From Oligoflexales bacterium (lineage in GTDB: Bacteria; Bdellovibrionota_B; Oligoflexia; Oligoflexales; RGVZ01), in NCBI GenBank assembly GCA_947468665.1, contig CANILH010000021.1, positions 1-41,806 of the forward strand: DNA of 41,806 bases, written 5' to 3'. The notes beneath the pieces were generated by a model. It made no database searches. It saw only the letters and a list, made by a program, of their open reading frames with translations, and had not been told where the DNA came from. Positions 22,245-29,203 of the stretch are shown piece by piece (position 1 is the stretch's first letter; every line of letters starts with the position of its first letter). Position numbers and translations under genes: made by a program.

Positions 22245-22739
22245 ATGGCGGCTAAGGCACTTTACGCGGGTAGTTTTGATCCGGTGACCATGGGACATTT
22301 GGATATTATTGAGCGGGCCAGCCGGATGTTTGGTCATGTTGTTGTGGCTGTGGGGGTAAACCCCAAAAAGCCTGGATTATTCACCACTGAAGAGCGGGTC
22401 GCCCTTCTGACCGCATCCTGCAAGGGAATACGCAATATTACTATAAAGTCTTTTTCGGGCCTGACAGCTGATTTCGCGGCTCAGGAAAAATGCTCCGTTC
22501 TGGTTCGTGGACTGCGGGACGCTCAGGATTTTGGGTTTGAGATGCAAATGGCACACATGAATCATCACCTGACCGCGTCACTAGAGACGGTTTTTATTCC
22601 ATGTCTCCAGCAGTACTCAAGTGTCAGCTCGTCTCTGGTAAAGGAAGTCGTTTTTTTGCTTGGAAAAGACGGTGGAAAAATCAAAGGTCTTGTTCCGGCG
22701 GTTGTTGAGAAAGCGCTCCTGAAGAAATTTAAGAAATGA
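22245..22739 (+). CDS. coaD: Phosphopantetheine adenylyltransferase
   Basis: 164 aa; ALYAGSFDPVTMGHLDIIERASRMF, LVRGLRDAQDFGFEMQMAHMN, SSSLVKEV. Confidence 0.95.
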   Translation: MAAKALYAGSFDPVTMGHLDIIERASRMFGHVVVAVGVNPKKPGLFTTEERVALLTASCKGIRNITIKSFSGLTADFAAQEKCSVLVRGLRDAQDFGFEMQMAHMNHHLTASLETVFIPCLQQYSSVSSSLVKEVVFLLGKDGGKIKGLVPAVVEKALLKKFKK

Positions 22740-25144
22740 TTTCGGTGATGCCAATTCCCCAATGGCGGGTTCTCGTTTTTTTTACTGCGAGCATTGCCAC
22801 GCTCCAGACGGGACCAGCCTCAGGGGCTGGCATCGCCGCGATGACTCAGGGGCCATTTGCCCTCAACAGGGGCGATCAGATTATTATCGACGCGCGCCCC
22901 GTGACGCCGTCTTCCCATGTGGAATGGTGGAGTGGCGGCGCGTTGATATGCGATAAGCCCCGGTGTGTCATTGATACCTCGTCATATACTCCGGGCGAGT
23001 ACAAATACGAGGTTATTGTATCTGACGGTGAGGGGATCGCGACGGCAGGCTTGTCGGTCAGCGCGAATGACTCGCCGCCCCTTTACGTACCAAAAACTGT
23101 GAACCCAACACTGACGCAAGTGAATTCCGGGCTAACGGTCGTTAAAAATGGCGAATGGCTGATCGTGGCGCGGGCCGGCAGCATTACGACTCCAAACGCC
23201 CGCAATCCATCAAAACCAACGCGCGTCGACTCAGTCGGGGGCGTGCTCGAGGGCGCGATTTATTCCGTTGCCGGTGGAAGCCAGGCGATTTTGCGAAAGA
23301 TTGGTTCTGCGGAGGAGTGGCTCATATCATCCGGATCTACCTTTAAGTTTCGCCAAAATGCATTCGAGTTGCTTTCTGGCCAGGGCATTTGGCGCGTTCT
23401 ACAGGGAAGTCAACCGACTCCCGGCGTGGCGCTCGTCGCGGGGGCTCAAATAAAGACTTTGGGAAGTGTTTTTCTCAGTGTCACGATGGGGCAATCAGCG
23501 GACGGAGCGGCCAAGGTTCTCGCGCGAAATTTTGAGGGGGATAAGGTTACTTTGTCCTGCGCTGGTGGCGCCCCTGAATCTGTTGATAGTGGCTCTTCTA
23601 AGGTAATTAATTTGGGCGCGACGGGCGCATGTGTCTCTTTGGAAAGTCAGGCGTTTAACGCCGGAGATCCCGCGCCTCTGGTTCGGACGTGGTCCCCCTG
23701 GTGGCTTGGAAAGGGTTCTCCAACGAATGCTGACAGATGGCGCGCGGAATGGGGTCATCTAAAAGACAATCGCTCTGAGGCCCTGATCCTTGCTGATGCC
23801 TTAGCGGCACAGAAAGGTCGGCGGTGCGCGGATGGTTTGGATCTGGTCGGCATCCGCCAGCCATCAGCGGGAGGGCGTGGAACGTTCACACGGCTCATGG
23901 GTGATTGTCAGTTTGAGCTTGGGCTGTTCGCCAAAGCTCTCGCAACATTTACTGAGCTGGACACTTCCGGTGCTGATCCATTATGGGCGGCCTTTATGGT
24001 CGCGAGATCCCATCAAATGTCAGGTCATCATAAATTAGCCCTTGAATGGTTTCGTGAGGCTTTTAAACGAGGTTTTGAAGACCGATCGGCGCTCGCCAGA
24101 TACGCCATCGAGGCAGCCGTGGTCGATGAGAATCCAATCGAGAGGCTGCGTTGGCTTGAGGTGGCGATGATTTATGAGACCGATGATGCCCGGTATCCCC
24201 AGGATATTAGGGACGCGTCGAATTGGCGCACTTACCGGCCATGGGGAAGCGTGGTCAAAGGGCTTATGTTTATGGATAGCCAGGCGCTGCCTGTAAACTC
24301 AAAAAAGATCTCTGTAATGCCCCAAAACGCGAAGGTGAGTCGATCACTTGTGTTCGGTATTACTGGTGATTGGTGGACGACTCGTCACCTGGCGCGGGAT
24401 CTCAATCTTAAAATTTCTGGAACTCACGACGTTTACGTGCCAAAAGAATCAAGTATCTCGTTTGCCTCGAGATCGGTTCACGAGATCTCCGCGGAAGTAA
24501 TCGCTGGCGGGGATATTGATGAGCGAAATGAGCCGGTGGACCGGTGGACCGGGGCTCTGGCCGGAACAATCGGAACCGGACTCGCTGGCGGTGAGAGGCA
24601 GCGTGACCGTATGGGCTGGTCAATGACCGTGGGGCGTCCCAGTTGGAGTCATCTGTCATGCGGCATAAAATCAGATAAATATCTTGATCCAAAACCAGGC
24701 GGCGCTGATGTCATTGATCTGGATCTGAGCCTTTATACGGGTGAGGCTGATCATAGTCATTTAGATTTGGCCTTTTTAGTCAATGCGGCCGCCATGAACG
24801 GGGAGTTGTCCTGGTGGTTGGGTAGTGAGTATGGAACGGTCGATTACCGGACTGGAATTATGGATCAGTATGATCATTCACTTATCAGGTTATCGGCGAA
24901 GCTTGGCTGGGTCGTGAGCAGGAGAGTTGAGTTATTTATGGATCCGGAATTTTTGTCGAGAACCTTTAAAGACAATGGTGGCACAGATCAGTCAACGGGC
25001 GCTCATGTTGGTGCTCGCTTGATGGTGGCTCCGCTTTGGAACCTGATTGTTGACACAGCTATTGAGAACCGCGCCGTCAGTAAAGATGAAACATCATCGT
25101 GGTCGAGGCTTATCTACGGGATTGGGCTGTCGGCGGAGCTTTGA
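22736..25144 (+). CDS. Large exported protein with FecR-like and TPR-like regions and a beta-barrel-like C-terminus
   Basis: 802 aa; signal peptide; FecR-like stretch (VGGVLEGAIYSVAGGSQAILRKI...SGSTFKF...GVALVAGAQIKTLGSVF), TPR-like middle, amphipathic beta-strand C-terminus; overlaps coaD by ATGA. Confidence 0.6.
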   Translation: MISVMPIPQWRVLVFFTASIATLQTGPASGAGIAAMTQGPFALNRGDQIIIDARPVTPSSHVEWWSGGALICDKPRCVIDTSSYTPGEYKYEVIVSDGEGIATAGLSVSANDSPPLYVPKTVNPTLTQVNSGLTVVKNGEWLIVARAGSITTPNARNPSKPTRVDSVGGVLEGAIYSVAGGSQAILRKIGSAEEWLISSGSTFKFRQNAFELLSGQGIWRVLQGSQPTPGVALVAGAQIKTLGSVFLSVTMGQSADGAAKVLARNFEGDKVTLSCAGGAPESVDSGSSKVINLGATGACVSLESQAFNAGDPAPLVRTWSPWWLGKGSPTNADRWRAEWGHLKDNRSEALILADALAAQKGRRCADGLDLVGIRQPSAGGRGTFTRLMGDCQFELGLFAKALATFTELDTSGADPLWAAFMVARSHQMSGHHKLALEWFREAFKRGFEDRSALARYAIEAAVVDENPIERLRWLEVAMIYETDDARYPQDIRDASNWRTYRPWGSVVKGLMFMDSQALPVNSKKISVMPQNAKVSRSLVFGITGDWWTTRHLARDLNLKISGTHDVYVPKESSISFASRSVHEISAEVIAGGDIDERNEPVDRWTGALAGTIGTGLAGGERQRDRMGWSMTVGRPSWSHLSCGIKSDKYLDPKPGGADVIDLDLSLYTGEADHSHLDLAFLVNAAAMNGELSWWLGSEYGTVDYRTGIMDQYDHSLIRLSAKLGWVVSRRVELFMDPEFLSRTFKDNGGTDQSTGAHVGARLMVAPLWNLIVDTAIENRAVSKDETSSWSRLIYGIGLSAEL

Positions 25145-26088
25145 AGAATCTCAAACCATAGAAGGAGCTTTGAGGTCGAAAGAGATTCCTCCGAGTCTTT
25201 AAAGAGCGGTCCGAGGATCGGTATTGAAGCCAGCCAGGGTTGCTCTCTTATGGATGTCGAGGATGAGGACAGATTGATGATGGCAGCGAGTGTTTTTTGT
25301 CCTAGTTTAACGTTAATCGATGATGTTACATCGCTTAATCCATAGGAGCCCTTTCCCCGCGACGGCGTCCTGAGTGATACCGAAAAAGGAATTTTGAGAC
25401 TTTGTGCATCCAGGGGAATTAGTTTCATTTTTATGTCCAGGCCGTGACTTTTCCACGTGCTGATTACGTGTCCCTGATCGGTTTTTGACTGAAACTCGTC
25501 TTCGGCACCCGCCCTGATTGTCAGGTCCTCACATGGCGTAGAGGTCAAAACCGGATCTCCGATGATATGGCGCTTGTATTGACTATGGCGCGGATCAAGG
25601 CTGATGCCAAGGCCCGTGGTGAGGCTTCCATTCCGCCAACGTAATATCGTGTCGATATCGATGCCGGCCGATTGAAGATCGTAGTCGTCGACCAGCTCAA
25701 TGGTTGCGTGTGTCTCATATTGTGTCCTTCCATCCGTTGGGGCGCAAGTGACGTCTCCGGGCTTTATTGTCGAAATATTATCCACCAGGGCGCGTTTGGT
25801 TTTTTCCGGCCGCGGACGGACGTCAGCGTAGAGTGTTCTTGGCTCGCTTGATTTTAGTTTTGTCTCAATAGCAACGACCCCCGTCCTGAGCGCCGTTACA
25901 GACCAGTAGTCGTCGTGATCGTGAACCAGATGAATAATTCCTTTGCGGGTGACGTGCACCCGAACCGCGTCTTTTAACTCGATGGTTCTGGCATCGCCTG
26001 TGTGGAGGATTATCTTTTCAACATCAGCCTCCCCGTAGGCTGATGTTTGTATCATGAGCACCACGAGCGTGATGTACCAGCGTTTCAT
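25114..26088 (-). CDS. CpaC/RcpA-like secretin of Tad/Flp type (short)
   Basis: ATG at 26088: MKRWYITLVVLMIQTSAYGEADVEKI signal peptide; N-domain like the pilus secretin N-terminal domain (IILHTGDARTIELKDAVRVHVTRKGIIHLV...TGVVAIETK); C-terminal secretin signature GQKTLAAIINLSSSSTSIREQPWLASIPILGPLFK. Confidence 0.72.
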   Translation of the reverse strand: MKRWYITLVVLMIQTSAYGEADVEKIILHTGDARTIELKDAVRVHVTRKGIIHLVHDHDDYWSVTALRTGVVAIETKLKSSEPRTLYADVRPRPEKTKRALVDNISTIKPGDVTCAPTDGRTQYETHATIELVDDYDLQSAGIDIDTILRWRNGSLTTGLGISLDPRHSQYKRHIIGDPVLTSTPCEDLTIRAGAEDEFQSKTDQGHVISTWKSHGLDIKMKLIPLDAQSLKIPFSVSLRTPSRGKGSYGLSDVTSSINVKLGQKTLAAIINLSSSSTSIREQPWLASIPILGPLFKDSEESLSTSKLLLWFEILQSSADSPIP

Positions 26089-26089
26089 G

Positions 26090-26524
26090 TTAGTCCCCAT
26101 ATGTGACCCGAGGGTGTTGACGGCAGGCATGGATAGTCTGGCCAGCGCCCGCGTCAAGTAATTGAATAGAACGAAGATCTCCTGGTGTAATCGCGAGAGC
26201 CGTATTTTCGAGTGATTCCAGTGGCCCGGAGAAAATCGCGAAACTCTCATGAATTGAGAATGTCAGGGGTATGTGCTCGATAACGCACGGGTCAGACTCG
26301 ACTCCGGAGACTCTCAAAAATCGAACTGATTTCCCCCGTAGGGTCTCCGCATCAGTCATCCGGCGCAGCTGAGTCAATGGAACCGTGATCGAGAACCCTT
26401 GCTTCGCTGAGCTGACGCGGGGTTTTGAGTCGAGAAGTGGCATGCACCACATGGCAAGAATAAATCCTGAAATCACGCAGGCTCCGCAGGTCAGAGTTTT
26501 GCGAGGCAGGTTTTCGATCGTCAT
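26090..26524 (-). CDS. CpaB/RcpC-like Flp pilus assembly protein (short)
   Basis: ATG at 26524 (ATGA overlap with upstream gene): one TM then GFSITVPLTQLRRMTDAETLRGKSVRFLRVSG...ESLENTALAITPGDLRSIQLLDAGAGQTIHACRQ, resembling the CpaB/RcpC SAF-like domain; directly precedes the secretin as in cpaBC. Confidence 0.5.
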   Translation of the reverse strand: MTIENLPRKTLTCGACVISGFILAMWCMPLLDSKPRVSSAKQGFSITVPLTQLRRMTDAETLRGKSVRFLRVSGVESDPCVIEHIPLTFSIHESFAIFSGPLESLENTALAITPGDLRSIQLLDAGAGQTIHACRQHPRVTYGD

Positions 26525-26826
26525 CCGCAGCCCCCCGAGGCGCAAAATTGAGTGAGCTCCCGAAAAAGTTCTGGCAAAGGACTTTCCTTACCGCGTCCGG
26601 CCTCATGGAGGTGTGGGATAAGGCAATTTATAGACACATGTTCAAAGGGAGTGATGAGCTGGTCTTCAGGGCTGGTCACGACGCTTGCGGTATCCTCGCA
26701 ATCGTGACGGGTTTCCTGCCAAGAGAGTAATCGAAAATGTACAGAGTGATATTTGAGGCTAAATCCCGCCAGCGTAAGTGACAGTATCAGGCTAAACGTC
26801 GCCGAAAGAATGGGGGCTACTTCCAT
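26521..26826 (-). CDS. TadE-like single-TM minor pilin-like protein
   Basis: 101 aa, N-terminal MEVAPILSATFSLILSLTLAGFSLKYH TM segment and small soluble domain; operonic position. Confidence 0.4.
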   Translation of the reverse strand: MEVAPILSATFSLILSLTLAGFSLKYHSVHFRLLSWQETRHDCEDTASVVTSPEDQLITPFEHVSINCLIPHLHEAGRGKESPLPELFRELTQFCASGGCG

Positions 26827-27260
26827 AGGTCGGGGTCCTCATTTAGATTGGTTTCACTGAGGCGGTAGGTGTAGTTTGGTGTGTCTGGTTTTTCCTCATC
26901 CGAATTTCTTAGATAAAGCTCAGCCACTGGCATAAGTGACCTGATGTCGAGACAATGATCCGACGTGATCTCAAATTCTGCGGCGTAGCGTGCGGTGATG
27001 GATTTTCTAAAAAAGCTATCCGTAACGCCGAAGAGCTTCCTGGACCGGGGGTGTTTCACGACCTGCTGTAAAGCAAAGGCGTGAAAGTTTGTGATGGCCG
27101 CAAGGGCCCGTCCGCAGGCATTGGCCTTGTATTCTGACACCCAAAGAGACCTTGAAATCTGATGGTTGCGGTCAGATATTTTTAGCAGGGCTAAGCAGGT
27201 CCAGGCAAATAGCCCCAATCCAAAAACAATACTGATAAAAGCGCTAAACGACTGGCTCAC
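26817..27260 (-). CDS. TadG/TadE-like protein, first gene of the Tad-like operon
   Basis: 147 aa, GTG start at 27260 with AAAGGAG RBS; MSQSFSAFISIVFGLGLFAWTCLALLKISDRNHQISRSLWVSEYKANACGRALAAITNFHAF resembles Tad pseudopilin N-termini; overlaps the next gene by 10 bp. Confidence 0.4.
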   Translation of the reverse strand: MSQSFSAFISIVFGLGLFAWTCLALLKISDRNHQISRSLWVSEYKANACGRALAAITNFHAFALQQVVKHPRSRKLFGVTDSFFRKSITARYAAEFEITSDHCLDIRSLMPVAELYLRNSDEEKPDTPNYTYRLSETNLNEDPDLWK

Positions 27261-27417
27261 GGTAGTCTCCTTTAGGGGGACGTTATGAGCTCAATCAAAC
27301 CATTTTAATTGGATGACCGCCAACGACATGAGTGCGCGCTAATTCTGGGAGGCATTAAAAAGACTCCGGGAATTACAGGCAGTAAGTAAGATTTCCACAG
27401 GCTTGAACTGTCGGTGA
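27252..27417. repeat. ~166-bp imperfect direct repeat, copy 1 (upstream region and start of the Tad-like operon)
   Basis: Matches 28192-28358; blocks CTGG[CT]TCACGGTAGTCTCCTTT.GGGGACGTTATGAGCTCAATCA and an identical 28-mer GATTTCCACAGGCTTGAACTGTCGGTGA at the far end. Confidence 0.92.
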
Positions 27418-27499
27418 CAGACGTCATGACGCGCCATCATTGTTCTGGACTAATATTTCGGGACATTTTTGGGGTCGGCAATCGGAACGCGCTCCGTTT

Positions 27500-27847
27500 T
27501 TAAGACGCGACTCGTACCTGGACGCGAAGTCCTGACTCATCCACTAAAGTCTGTAACGCTAACTGGATAAATACAACTTCCGGTTGACCAAGCGCTCTGG
27601 CAAACGCTACGGCCTTGAGAAGGCTTACAGATCGTCGTCCTTTTTCGATATCATTGAGGTGTTGGCGAGGTATGCTTAACACTCTCGCGAACTCCGCTTG
27701 GGAGATCTCGTCAGACAGGCGAAGAGCGGCTAGAGCTCGCCCGATATTAAGTGGACCACCAGTAAGTCGTTGTAAGATTACTTCTGAGTCTTTTGATCCA
27801 GGTGCTTTCTTCCTGGCGGGTGGCTTTTGTTTTTTCTTAATATTCAT
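27500..27847 (-). CDS. higA: HigA/XRE-family antitoxin
   Basis: 115 aa; HTH ISQAEFARVLSIPRQHLNDIEKGRRSVS; overlaps toxin 3' end by 11 bp (CATGAATATTAA). Confidence 0.82.
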   Translation of the reverse strand: MNIKKKQKPPARKKAPGSKDSEVILQRLTGGPLNIGRALAALRLSDEISQAEFARVLSIPRQHLNDIEKGRRSVSLLKAVAFARALGQPEVVFIQLALQTLVDESGLRVQVRVAS

Positions 27848-28115
27848 GATTATTTACCTCAACAACTCTCACGAATGTTACAGTGCCATCCGAAGTGACT
27901 TCATAAATTGCCCGATAAGACTTATTTAAACGAATTGATCGTTGACCCCTGTGGTTTCCAATGAGTTTTTCATCATGGTAGCCGGGAATCTCTCGAACTT
28001 TTCCCAAGCCAATGTCTTCCACGGACCGTTTCCAAAGATAGAATTTATCCACAATAAAAAATGGTAGTCGTCGAAGTTGTTTGACGGCCAACGCTGAGAT
28101 TTTAACGTGGTTAAT
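27837..28115 (-). CDS. higB: RelE/HigB-type toxin
   Basis: Preferred TTG start at 28115 with GGGAAGG RBS: (M)INHVKISALAVKQLRRLPFFIVDKFYLWKRSVEDIGLGKVREIPGYHDEKLIGNHRGQRSIRLNKSYRAIYEV...VVEVNNHEY. The track start at 28163 lies in the predicted promoter. Confidence 0.8.
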   Translation of the reverse strand: MNHVKISALAVKQLRRLPFFIVDKFYLWKRSVEDIGLGKVREIPGYHDEKLIGNHRGQRSIRLNKSYRAIYEVTSDGTVTFVRVVEVNNHEY

Positions 28116-28136
28116 CAAGCGGGCCTTCCCTGTATA

Positions 28137-28163
28137 TGTACCCACAAATTGGGTACATGTCAA
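28137..28163 (-). promoter_or_regulatory. Predicted higBA promoter with overlapping palindromic operator
   Basis: Minus strand TTGACA-17 bp-TACATA; spacer and -10 cover the inverted repeat TGTACCCA-ATTTG-TGGGTACA (28137-28157). Confidence 0.55.
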
Positions 28164-28191
28164 CTGGTTTTGTTGTAAATGAGTTGCGCGG

Positions 28192-28358
28192 CTGGTTCAC
28201 GGTAGTCTCCTTTATGGGGACGTTATGAGCTCAATCAGACCATTTTAAATGGATGACCGCCAACGACTTGAGCGCGCGCCTATTCGTGATAGGCGTTAAC
28301 AAGACTCGCATAATTTCGGGTGTTAGGCGAGATTTCCACAGGCTTGAACTGTCGGTGA
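28192..28358. repeat. ~166-bp imperfect direct repeat, copy 2
   Basis: See copy 1 at 27252-27417; retains the AAAGGAG RBS and GTG start codon on the minus strand, then diverges. Confidence 0.92.
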
Positions 28359-28409
28359 AGGAAGGTTGTACAAACATCTAACCAAGTATCCTTAAACACA
28401 GTCTGGGTG

Positions 28410-28496: not shown

Positions 28497-28757
28497 ATGG
28501 CTGCCCCGAAGAAATTCACCTCGAAAATCGCCGCAAACGGCCAGGTTGTCGTTCCTAAAGAACTGCGGGACTTACTTAGTTTGAAGGGCGGAGATTCTAT
28601 AGTCTTCATAGCGGAAGAGACAGGGACTGGCATGATCAGGATTGAGTTAAAAAAACCCACAAAATCCTTCAAAAACATGCTGGGACTTTTTTCAGACCTC
28701 AAGGGACGTTCAACGGCGAAAATTCTCCGTGAGCTTGACGACGAGGAAATGCCATGA
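28497..28757 (+). CDS. vapB: AbrB/SpoVT-like antitoxin (VapB-type)
   Basis: 86 aa; FTSKIAANGQVVVPKELRDLLSLKGGDSIVFI swapped-hairpin AbrB fold; ATGA overlap with the PIN gene. Confidence 0.85.
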   Translation: MAAPKKFTSKIAANGQVVVPKELRDLLSLKGGDSIVFIAEETGTGMIRIELKKPTKSFKNMLGLFSDLKGRSTAKILRELDDEEMP

Positions 28758-29203
28758 TTATTCTGGACTCCTGCGCGGTGCTTGATATTGTTTTTGGAGA
28801 GGCGCAGGCGACGAGCCTGACAGAATTTCTTGATCGAGAACAGGCCAACGGACGAGACATCGTCTTTCTTCCGCTCACGGTTCTTGAAAGCTTCTCAGTA
28901 GTGGCTGTGAGATTTAAAGAAGGAAAATCGAAAATCCACGATCTGGATTACTACCTGGGCATTATCCGGGATTTTGGCTCGGTCACGACTCTGGGCGATC
29001 TGTCTTCTGACATTATTGTAGAGTCGGCTAAAATCAAGGCGACACATGCCGCGAGCATGGTCGATTGCTACCTTATCGCAAACGCGGTCGCCCGAGGTGC
29101 TGAGATTATAACGGCTGACCAGGAGATCTTAAAATTTCGCTCAAAAAGCTCCAAGACCAGAAAAATAAACAAAAAATTCTCCGGCATTAAATGGCCTAAA
29201 TAG
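28754..29203 (+). CDS. vapC: PIN-domain toxin (VapC-type ribonuclease)
   Basis: 149 aa; acidic PIN residues in MIILDSCAVLDI, LTVLESFSV, MVDCYLIANA, ITADQEILKF. Confidence 0.87.
   Translation: MIILDSCAVLDIVFGEAQATSLTEFLDREQANGRDIVFLPLTVLESFSVVAVRFKEGKSKIHDLDYYLGIIRDFGSVTTLGDLSSDIIVESAKIKATHAASMVDCYLIANAVARGAEIITADQEILKFRSKSSKTRKINKKFSGIKWPK

What the first reader, a model, noticed from the sequence alone, without database searches (positions are those of the whole stretch)
25114..27260. Four-gene Tad/Flp-like envelope operon with a short secretin but no motor or pilin
Four tightly overlapping minus-strand genes read as TadG/E-like, TadE-like, CpaB/RcpC-like and CpaC/RcpA-like. The secretin call rests on a pilus-secretin N-domain and the IPILGPLF signature, and the cpaB-cpaC order is canonical. 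No Flp pilin, TadA ATPase, TadB/C platform, TadV peptidase or TadZ lies nearby. All four products are unusually small. This could be an auxiliary secretin module repurposed for export or host contact, or one that works in trans with a distant Tad system.
Basis: partly seen in the sequence, partly recalled or inferred. Interest (0 to 1): 0.7.

Follow-up and report, generated by a model that had tools for sequence, protein, structure and literature searches.

The report
Motorless Tad-type secretin operon of Oligoflexales
A compact four-gene operon encodes an outer-membrane secretin ring of the Tad-pilus type plus three small inner-membrane anchored proteins, and because almost every sampled member of the bacterial order Oligoflexales keeps it while most lack the pilus platform such rings normally serve, it looks like a previously undescribed stand-alone envelope channel rather than a piece of a Tad pilus.

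Summary
The four genes are real, in the stated place and order. The last is a genuine secretin: Pfam Secretin just under threshold in the window protein, but found in 29 of 32 family members; a family profile finds PilQ, RcpA and GspD; profile-profile alignment to canonical CpaC covers the whole protein including the N-domain. It is short because this genus lost a middle periplasmic domain, not because the ring is truncated. The TadE/TadG labels are not supported: these two proteins match no known family. CpaB is not matched either; only a weak full-length resemblance to its RcpC domain remains.

Synteny changes the picture. The secretin family is found in 41 of 43 sampled Oligoflexales genomes, mostly with the small genes beside it; the B and G families are in none of 14 other genomes of the phylum. 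Canonical CpaB occurs in 5 of 43; TadB/C-type platforms are missing from the host genome (85% complete) and from a 97% complete relative that keeps the operon. So it is neither an accessory of a distant Tad system nor a decaying relic. Best reading: an ancestral trans-envelope secretin conduit built like RcpC-RcpA, without its own motor, platform or pilin. Energy source and cargo are unknown.

The parts
26817..27260 (-). Gene G (147 aa): one N-terminal membrane helix plus ~110 aa predicted periplasmic domain with a conserved Cys pair (C49, C103) and N58; orthologues outside this genus mostly end in a W-P-N-W motif
   Evidence: ORF; order-wide alignment A4; no meaningful Pfam match in 16 members; found in 26 of 38 Oligoflexales and 0 of 14 other genomes of the phylum
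26521..26826 (-). Gene E (101 aa): one N-terminal membrane helix plus a short Cys-containing domain
   Evidence: ORF; alignment A3; no meaningful Pfam match in 16 members
26090..26524 (-). Gene B (144 aa from the ATG that overlaps the E stop): N-terminal membrane helix, ~90 aa alpha/beta periplasmic domain, two invariant Cys, conserved C-terminal V-x-Y-G motif
   Evidence: ORF and start; alignment A2; AlphaFold domain with pLDDT about 70-88; weak RcpC-like profile signal
25114..26088 (-). Gene S (324 aa): secretin with signal peptide, single N-domain, linker and complete C-terminal secretin domain
25813..26019 (-). S residues ~24-92: all-beta N-domain equivalent to the CpaC/RcpA N-domain (7 predicted strands)
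   Evidence: hhalign to canonical CpaC covers it; strands in the low-confidence model
25135..25620 (-). S residues ~157-318: secretin (beta-barrel and gate) domain
   Evidence: family-profile matches to PilQ, RcpA and GspD chains over the whole domain; TIGR02515 157-310
25201..25224 (-). IPILGPLF secretin signature
   Evidence: sequence; P290 is invariant and G293 nearly invariant in 32 family members
22736..25144 (+). Gene T (802 aa, P0005), convergent with S (3' ends overlap by 31 bp): TPR protein with a predicted C-terminal beta-barrel; candidate fifth component
   Evidence: TPR match; beta-barrel porin match in a relative; beside S or beside G-E-B across four families of the order; but also usually beside coaD-rsmD-speA, so synteny alone may explain it
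27236..27420 (-). Upstream region and start of gene G, present in a second, 85% identical copy at 28176-28360

Best explanation
S, B, E and G form a stand-alone trans-envelope secretin conduit that was present in the ancestor of Oligoflexales. S oligomerises into an outer-membrane ring. Its N-domain reaches into the periplasm and is met by B, an inner-membrane anchored adaptor that does the job RcpC does for RcpA; the conserved V-x-Y-G tail of B is the likely docking strand. G and E are single-helix inner-membrane proteins with disulfide-stabilised periplasmic domains that complete the inner-membrane base. The module has no recognisable pilin, platform or motor of its own, so it most likely works as a gated export channel for periplasmic or membrane-handed cargo, not as a Tad pilus. 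Shown: secretin identity, operon, gene-level conservation, missing Tad platform and canonical CpaB. Inferred: the B-S contact, the topology, the disulfides, channel function and absence of a dedicated motor.
For: Secretin domain: Pfam Secretin in 29 of 32 family members; family profile against PDB finds PilQ (9e-20), RcpA (1e-15), GspD; Foldseek top 39 hits of the (low-confidence) model are all secretins. CpaC/RcpA type: hhalign to canonical CpaC covers 405 columns including the N-domain, E 1e-19, against secretin-domain-only matches to the host's own PilQ and GspD. Order-wide vertical inheritance: S in 41 of 43 Oligoflexales, B in 31 of 38 and G in 26 of 38, B and G in 0 of 14 other genomes of the phylum; recurring neighbourhood epmA-like gene, G, E, B, S, T, coaD, rsmD, speA. 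S and B trees co-vary beyond the background (partial r 0.59-0.89). Missing parts: RcpC in 5 of 43, canonical CpaC N-domain in 4 of 43; only PilC and GspF (four T2SSF matches) in the host and in 97% complete G001, against six matches in the five genomes with canonical CpaB. The host has T4aP (pilMNOPQ-like genes) and T2SS loci with their own secretins, so S is a third one. Published analogue: RcpC is the periplasmic adaptor that docks on the RcpA N-domain through its C-terminal beta-hairpin (PMC12307814).
Against: B is not recognised as RcpC by Pfam or by standard hhalign probability, and its predicted fold finds no RcpC chain in the PDB search. No experiment shows expression, a ring or a cargo. 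The host assembly is 85% complete, so missing genes there are weaker evidence than in G001. A secretin with no dedicated energy source is unusual; T4aP or T2SS parts could serve it.
Confidence: 0.5

Rival explanations
1. The operon is an alternative secretin/alignment subcomplex that plugs into the genome's own type IVa pilus or type II secretion machine, using its motor and platform.
For: Host genome carries PilB/PilT/PilC, PilM-Q-like and T2SS genes. Three bitopic proteins followed by a secretin is organised like PilN-PilO-PilP-PilQ. In genus g10 the S gene has moved to within a few kb of pilB-pilT-pilC.
Against: Both host machines have their own secretin and alignment genes. B shows no profile similarity to the host's GspC-like or PilP-like proteins. 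In most families the operon is not near T4P genes.
Confidence: 0.25
2. A short (about 300 aa) TadA-like ATPase encoded elsewhere (G000:C13, beside dprA and smg) is the cognate motor, making a stripped-down Tad-like transporter with parts at separate loci, perhaps for DNA.
For: The ATPase is found in nearly all Oligoflexales sampled and is closer to TadA than to PilB/GspE; it sits next to or near dprA in most genomes examined.
Against: S and ATPase trees do not co-vary beyond controls (partial r 0.07-0.50). No genome examined places it beside S. TadA normally needs TadB/TadC, which are absent. Both genes are near-universal in the order, so co-occurrence says little.
Confidence: 0.12
3. One reading: the operon works in trans with a canonical Tad/Flp pilus encoded elsewhere.
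For: Some congeners (G002, G004, G005) do carry canonical Tad genes.
Against: These have their own CpaB and, where found, their own CpaC. The host and G001 lack CpaB, canonical CpaC and TadB/C. Canonical CpaB occurs in 5 of 43 genomes, the operon's secretin in 41 of 43.
Confidence: 0.05
4. The operon is a degenerating remnant of a Tad locus, and its small size reflects decay.
For: Small products; loss of the middle secretin domain in this genus; toxin-antitoxin-like genes next to it.
Against: All four frames are intact and conserved in congeners; invariant Cys, Gly, Pro and signature residues are kept; B, E and G are of normal size for their families.
Confidence: 0.03

Closest known systems
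RcpA/CpaC secretin of the Tad (T4c) pilus
   Same: N-domain plus secretin domain architecture; hhalign over the full length; RcpA solved chain 8odn among the profile hits
   Different: Not recognised by PF13629; not in a Tad locus; no TadD pilotin identified; most members carry a Cys-containing middle domain that this genus lost
RcpC/CpaB, the Tad periplasmic alignment complex
   Same: Encoded immediately before the secretin, N-terminal membrane helix, periplasmic domain, conserved C-terminal segment; weak full-domain profile resemblance to the RcpC domain
   Different: About half the length (single domain), two invariant Cys, no Pfam or hhalign-level match
PilN-PilO-PilP-PilQ of type IVa pili and GspC/L/M-GspD of T2SS
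   Same: Several bitopic inner-membrane proteins plus a secretin in one operon
   Different: No sequence relationship found for B; S is closer to CpaC than to PilQ/GspD; no PilM-like protein in the operon
'Needleless' T3SS* of Myxococcus xanthus and filamentous-phage pIV
   Same: Envelope complexes or secretin pores without the usual filament; pIV is also a small secretin
   Different: Different subfamilies and partners; T3SS* resembles a T3SS basal body (from the abstract of PMC12075869 only); pIV is hit only as a generic secretin

Membership tests
Secretin superfamily | C-terminal secretin domain matching PF00263 or solved secretins over its length | tested here: met
   29 of 32 members match PF00263; window protein itself 25.2 bits against a 27.5 cut-off; profile matches PilQ, RcpA and GspD across the domain. 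Foldseek hits all secretins, from a low-confidence model.
RcpA/CpaC secretin subfamily | Pilus N-domain (PF13629) before the secretin domain | tested here: inconclusive
   PF13629 hits 0 of 32 members, but profile-profile alignment to canonical CpaC spans the N-domain, prob 99.2%, E 1e-19.
CpaB/RcpC | PF16976 (RcpC) domain | tested here: inconclusive
   No meaningful Pfam match in 25 members; hhalign prob 1-10%; global score 12.2 exceeds 200 of 200 column shuffles and 53 of 53 windows from real families.
TadE/TadF/TadG minor pilins | TadE (PF07811) or Tad N-terminal pilin-like domain | tested here: not met
   No such Pfam match in any of 16 E or 16 G family members; no similarity of G to a congener's real TadE protein, which the same Pfam scan does detect.
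Tad/T4c pilus system | TadB/TadC platform (extra PF00482 proteins) | tested here: not met
   host and G001 have only PilC and GspF; genomes with canonical CpaB have two more matches.
Tad/T4c pilus system | TadA/CpaF ATPase in the locus | tested here: not met
   No T2SSE match on the window contig; eight places elsewhere in the genome, including one short TadA-like ATPase on C13.
Tad/T4c pilus system | Flp pilin and TadV prepilin peptidase | not tested
   None seen in the window ORF list by eye; genome-wide Flp and peptidase searches were not run.
Type IVa pilus / T2SS alignment complexes | Homology of B to PilP or GspC | tested here: not met
   hhalign against the host's PilP-like and GspC-like proteins: prob 0.1% and 1.4%; single sequences, so a weak test.

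The most novel reading that the evidence does not exclude
An order-defining, previously undescribed class of secretin-based envelope transporter in Oligoflexales, composed of three novel disulfide-bearing bitopic proteins and a minimal CpaC-type secretin, that functions without filament, platform or dedicated cytoplasmic motor.
Probability: 0.3. Interest if true: 0.8.

Novelty: new variant of a known kind. Interest (0 to 1): 0.55.

Why it matters
Secretins are normally studied as the exit gate of a motorised machine (T2SS, T4P, Tad, T3SS). An operon in which a CpaC-type secretin and its adaptor-like partner have been kept by nearly a whole bacterial order without a platform would give a natural minimal system for asking what a secretin conduit can do alone, and would name three protein families that have no Pfam entry. 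It is also a candidate for a lineage-wide cell-envelope trait in a group with few cultured members.

Tried and rejected
Pfam and NCBIfam scans of B, E, G and T: nothing for B, E, G. PF13629 across the order: hits only separate canonical CpaC-type loci. AlphaFold of S with only four sequences (input rule of the tool): mean pLDDT 44, usable only as weak support. AlphaFold of B: domain pLDDT about 70-88 but Foldseek returned unrelated immunoglobulin folds. Literature searches for Oligoflexales secretins found nothing on this operon. Considered the short TadA-like ATPase as motor: order-wide, but no co-evolution beyond controls. Considered T as a fifth component: its linkage to G-E-B persists after S moved away in genus g10, but T is also usually next to coaD, so left as a candidate. 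A broad secretin alignment could not be used for the named-genome scan, so names come from three close relatives only.
Full report
What is there. The window is the whole of contig C21 of a 2.6 Mb, 85% complete draft genome. Of the three closest named records two are titled Oligoflexales bacterium and one Bdellovibrio sp., so the host is taken to belong to Oligoflexales. At 25114-27260 on the minus strand lie four ORFs that I call G, E, B and S. They overlap by 10 bp, by an ATGA, and are separated by 1 nt. The true start of B is most likely the ATG at 26524, which gives 144 aa.

Secretin. Pfam Secretin hits S at 25.2 bits, just below the 27.5 cut-off, covering only the end of the model. The doubt disappears with relatives: 29 of 32 family members match, and a family profile finds PilQ, RcpA, GspD and other solved secretins over the whole C-terminal domain. 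An AlphaFold model made from only four sequences has low confidence (mean pLDDT 44), yet the 39 best Foldseek hits are all secretins. Against canonical CpaC proteins from the class the profile aligns over 405 columns, N-domain included (E 1e-19), whereas the host's own PilQ and GspD align only over the secretin domain. S is therefore of the CpaC/RcpA type, although PF13629 recognises none of the 32 members.

Why it is short. Most family members are 430-490 aa. The alignment shows that the window's genus lost a middle periplasmic segment of about 130 aa that carries conserved cysteines elsewhere. The N-domain and the secretin domain are complete. This leaves a single N-domain before the ring, the layout described for Pseudomonas RcpA (PMC10499894).

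The three small proteins. Each has one N-terminal hydrophobic segment. B has two invariant cysteines and a conserved C-terminal V-x-Y-G motif; G has two nearly invariant cysteines and, in most other genera, a W-P-N-W ending; E has a nearly invariant C-terminal cysteine. None of 25, 16 and 16 members gives a meaningful Pfam match. G is unrelated by hhalign to a congener's real TadE protein, so the TadE/TadG labels are dropped. B against CpaB gives an hhalign probability of only 1-10%, but the alignment is in register across the RcpC domain and its global score beats 200 of 200 column shuffles and 53 of 53 windows from real families. I treat B as a possible minimal RcpC, unproven.

Distribution. 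S is found in 41 of 43 sampled Oligoflexales genomes when searches are combined (two of these hits, in G011 and G016, are weak). B is found in 31 of 38 and G in 26 of 38 at E 0.001, and neither in 14 other genomes of the phylum. A recurring neighbourhood, epmA-like gene, G, E, B, S, then T, coaD, rsmD and speA, is seen in several families. In genus g10 S has moved next to secG and near pilBTC while G, E and B stayed behind next to T. S and B trees co-vary beyond the background of neighbouring housekeeping genes.

Is there a Tad system to serve? Canonical RcpC occurs in 5 of 43 order genomes and PF13629 in 4 of 43, in separate loci. The host and G001 (97% complete) have neither, and only two T2SSF proteins each, PilC and GspF. 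The host does have T4aP and T2SS loci with their own secretins. Flp pilin and prepilin peptidase were not searched genome-wide. Hence S is a third secretin without a recognisable platform of its own.

Mechanism. [quoted passage not shown] Whether the channel borrows energy from T4aP/T2SS, from the short TadA-like ATPase encoded beside dprA, or from nothing, is open. The ATPase shows no co-evolution with S above controls. The adjacent T protein (TPR plus predicted barrel) is a candidate partner, with synteny to coaD as the plain alternative.

Verdict. It is a new variant of a known kind: a Tad-type secretin module kept order-wide without a Tad pilus.

Noticed in passing
G000:C13:43159-44118 (L045:9157-10119); many order genomes: A short (265-340 aa) TadA-like ATPase is encoded beside or near dprA (often with smg, topA, LysM and PilZ-domain genes) in most Oligoflexales genomes examined; function unknown.
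   Followed up: partly
window 27236-27420 and 28176-28360: The region upstream of gene G, including its first codons, is duplicated at 85% identity with a toxin-antitoxin-like gene pair between the copies; no third full copy in the genome.
   Followed up: partly
window 27500-28163 and 28497-29203: Two toxin-antitoxin-like pairs: HTH with ParE/HigB-like (weak match), and MazE-like with PIN domain.
   Followed up: partly
window 22736-25144: Protein T combines an N-terminal segment that looks Ig-like by eye, TPR and a predicted C-terminal beta-barrel; found in about half the order genomes, often beside the operon or its G-E-B part.
   Followed up: partly
L129-L132 (G023, G027, G017, G037): Where S has moved away, a ~257-284 aa possible outer-membrane protein lies between B and T in its place.
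   Followed up: no
L090, L091, L092 (G002, G004, G005): Canonical Tad loci of congeners encode a ~583 aa protein with TadA-like similarity and an extra N-terminal region that resembles an FHA domain by eye.
   Followed up: no
row L030 (G031); rows for G024 and G028; rows for G015 and G025: A few secretin or B matches contain an in-frame stop, possibly frameshifts or read-through of overlapping gene ends in draft genomes.
   Followed up: no
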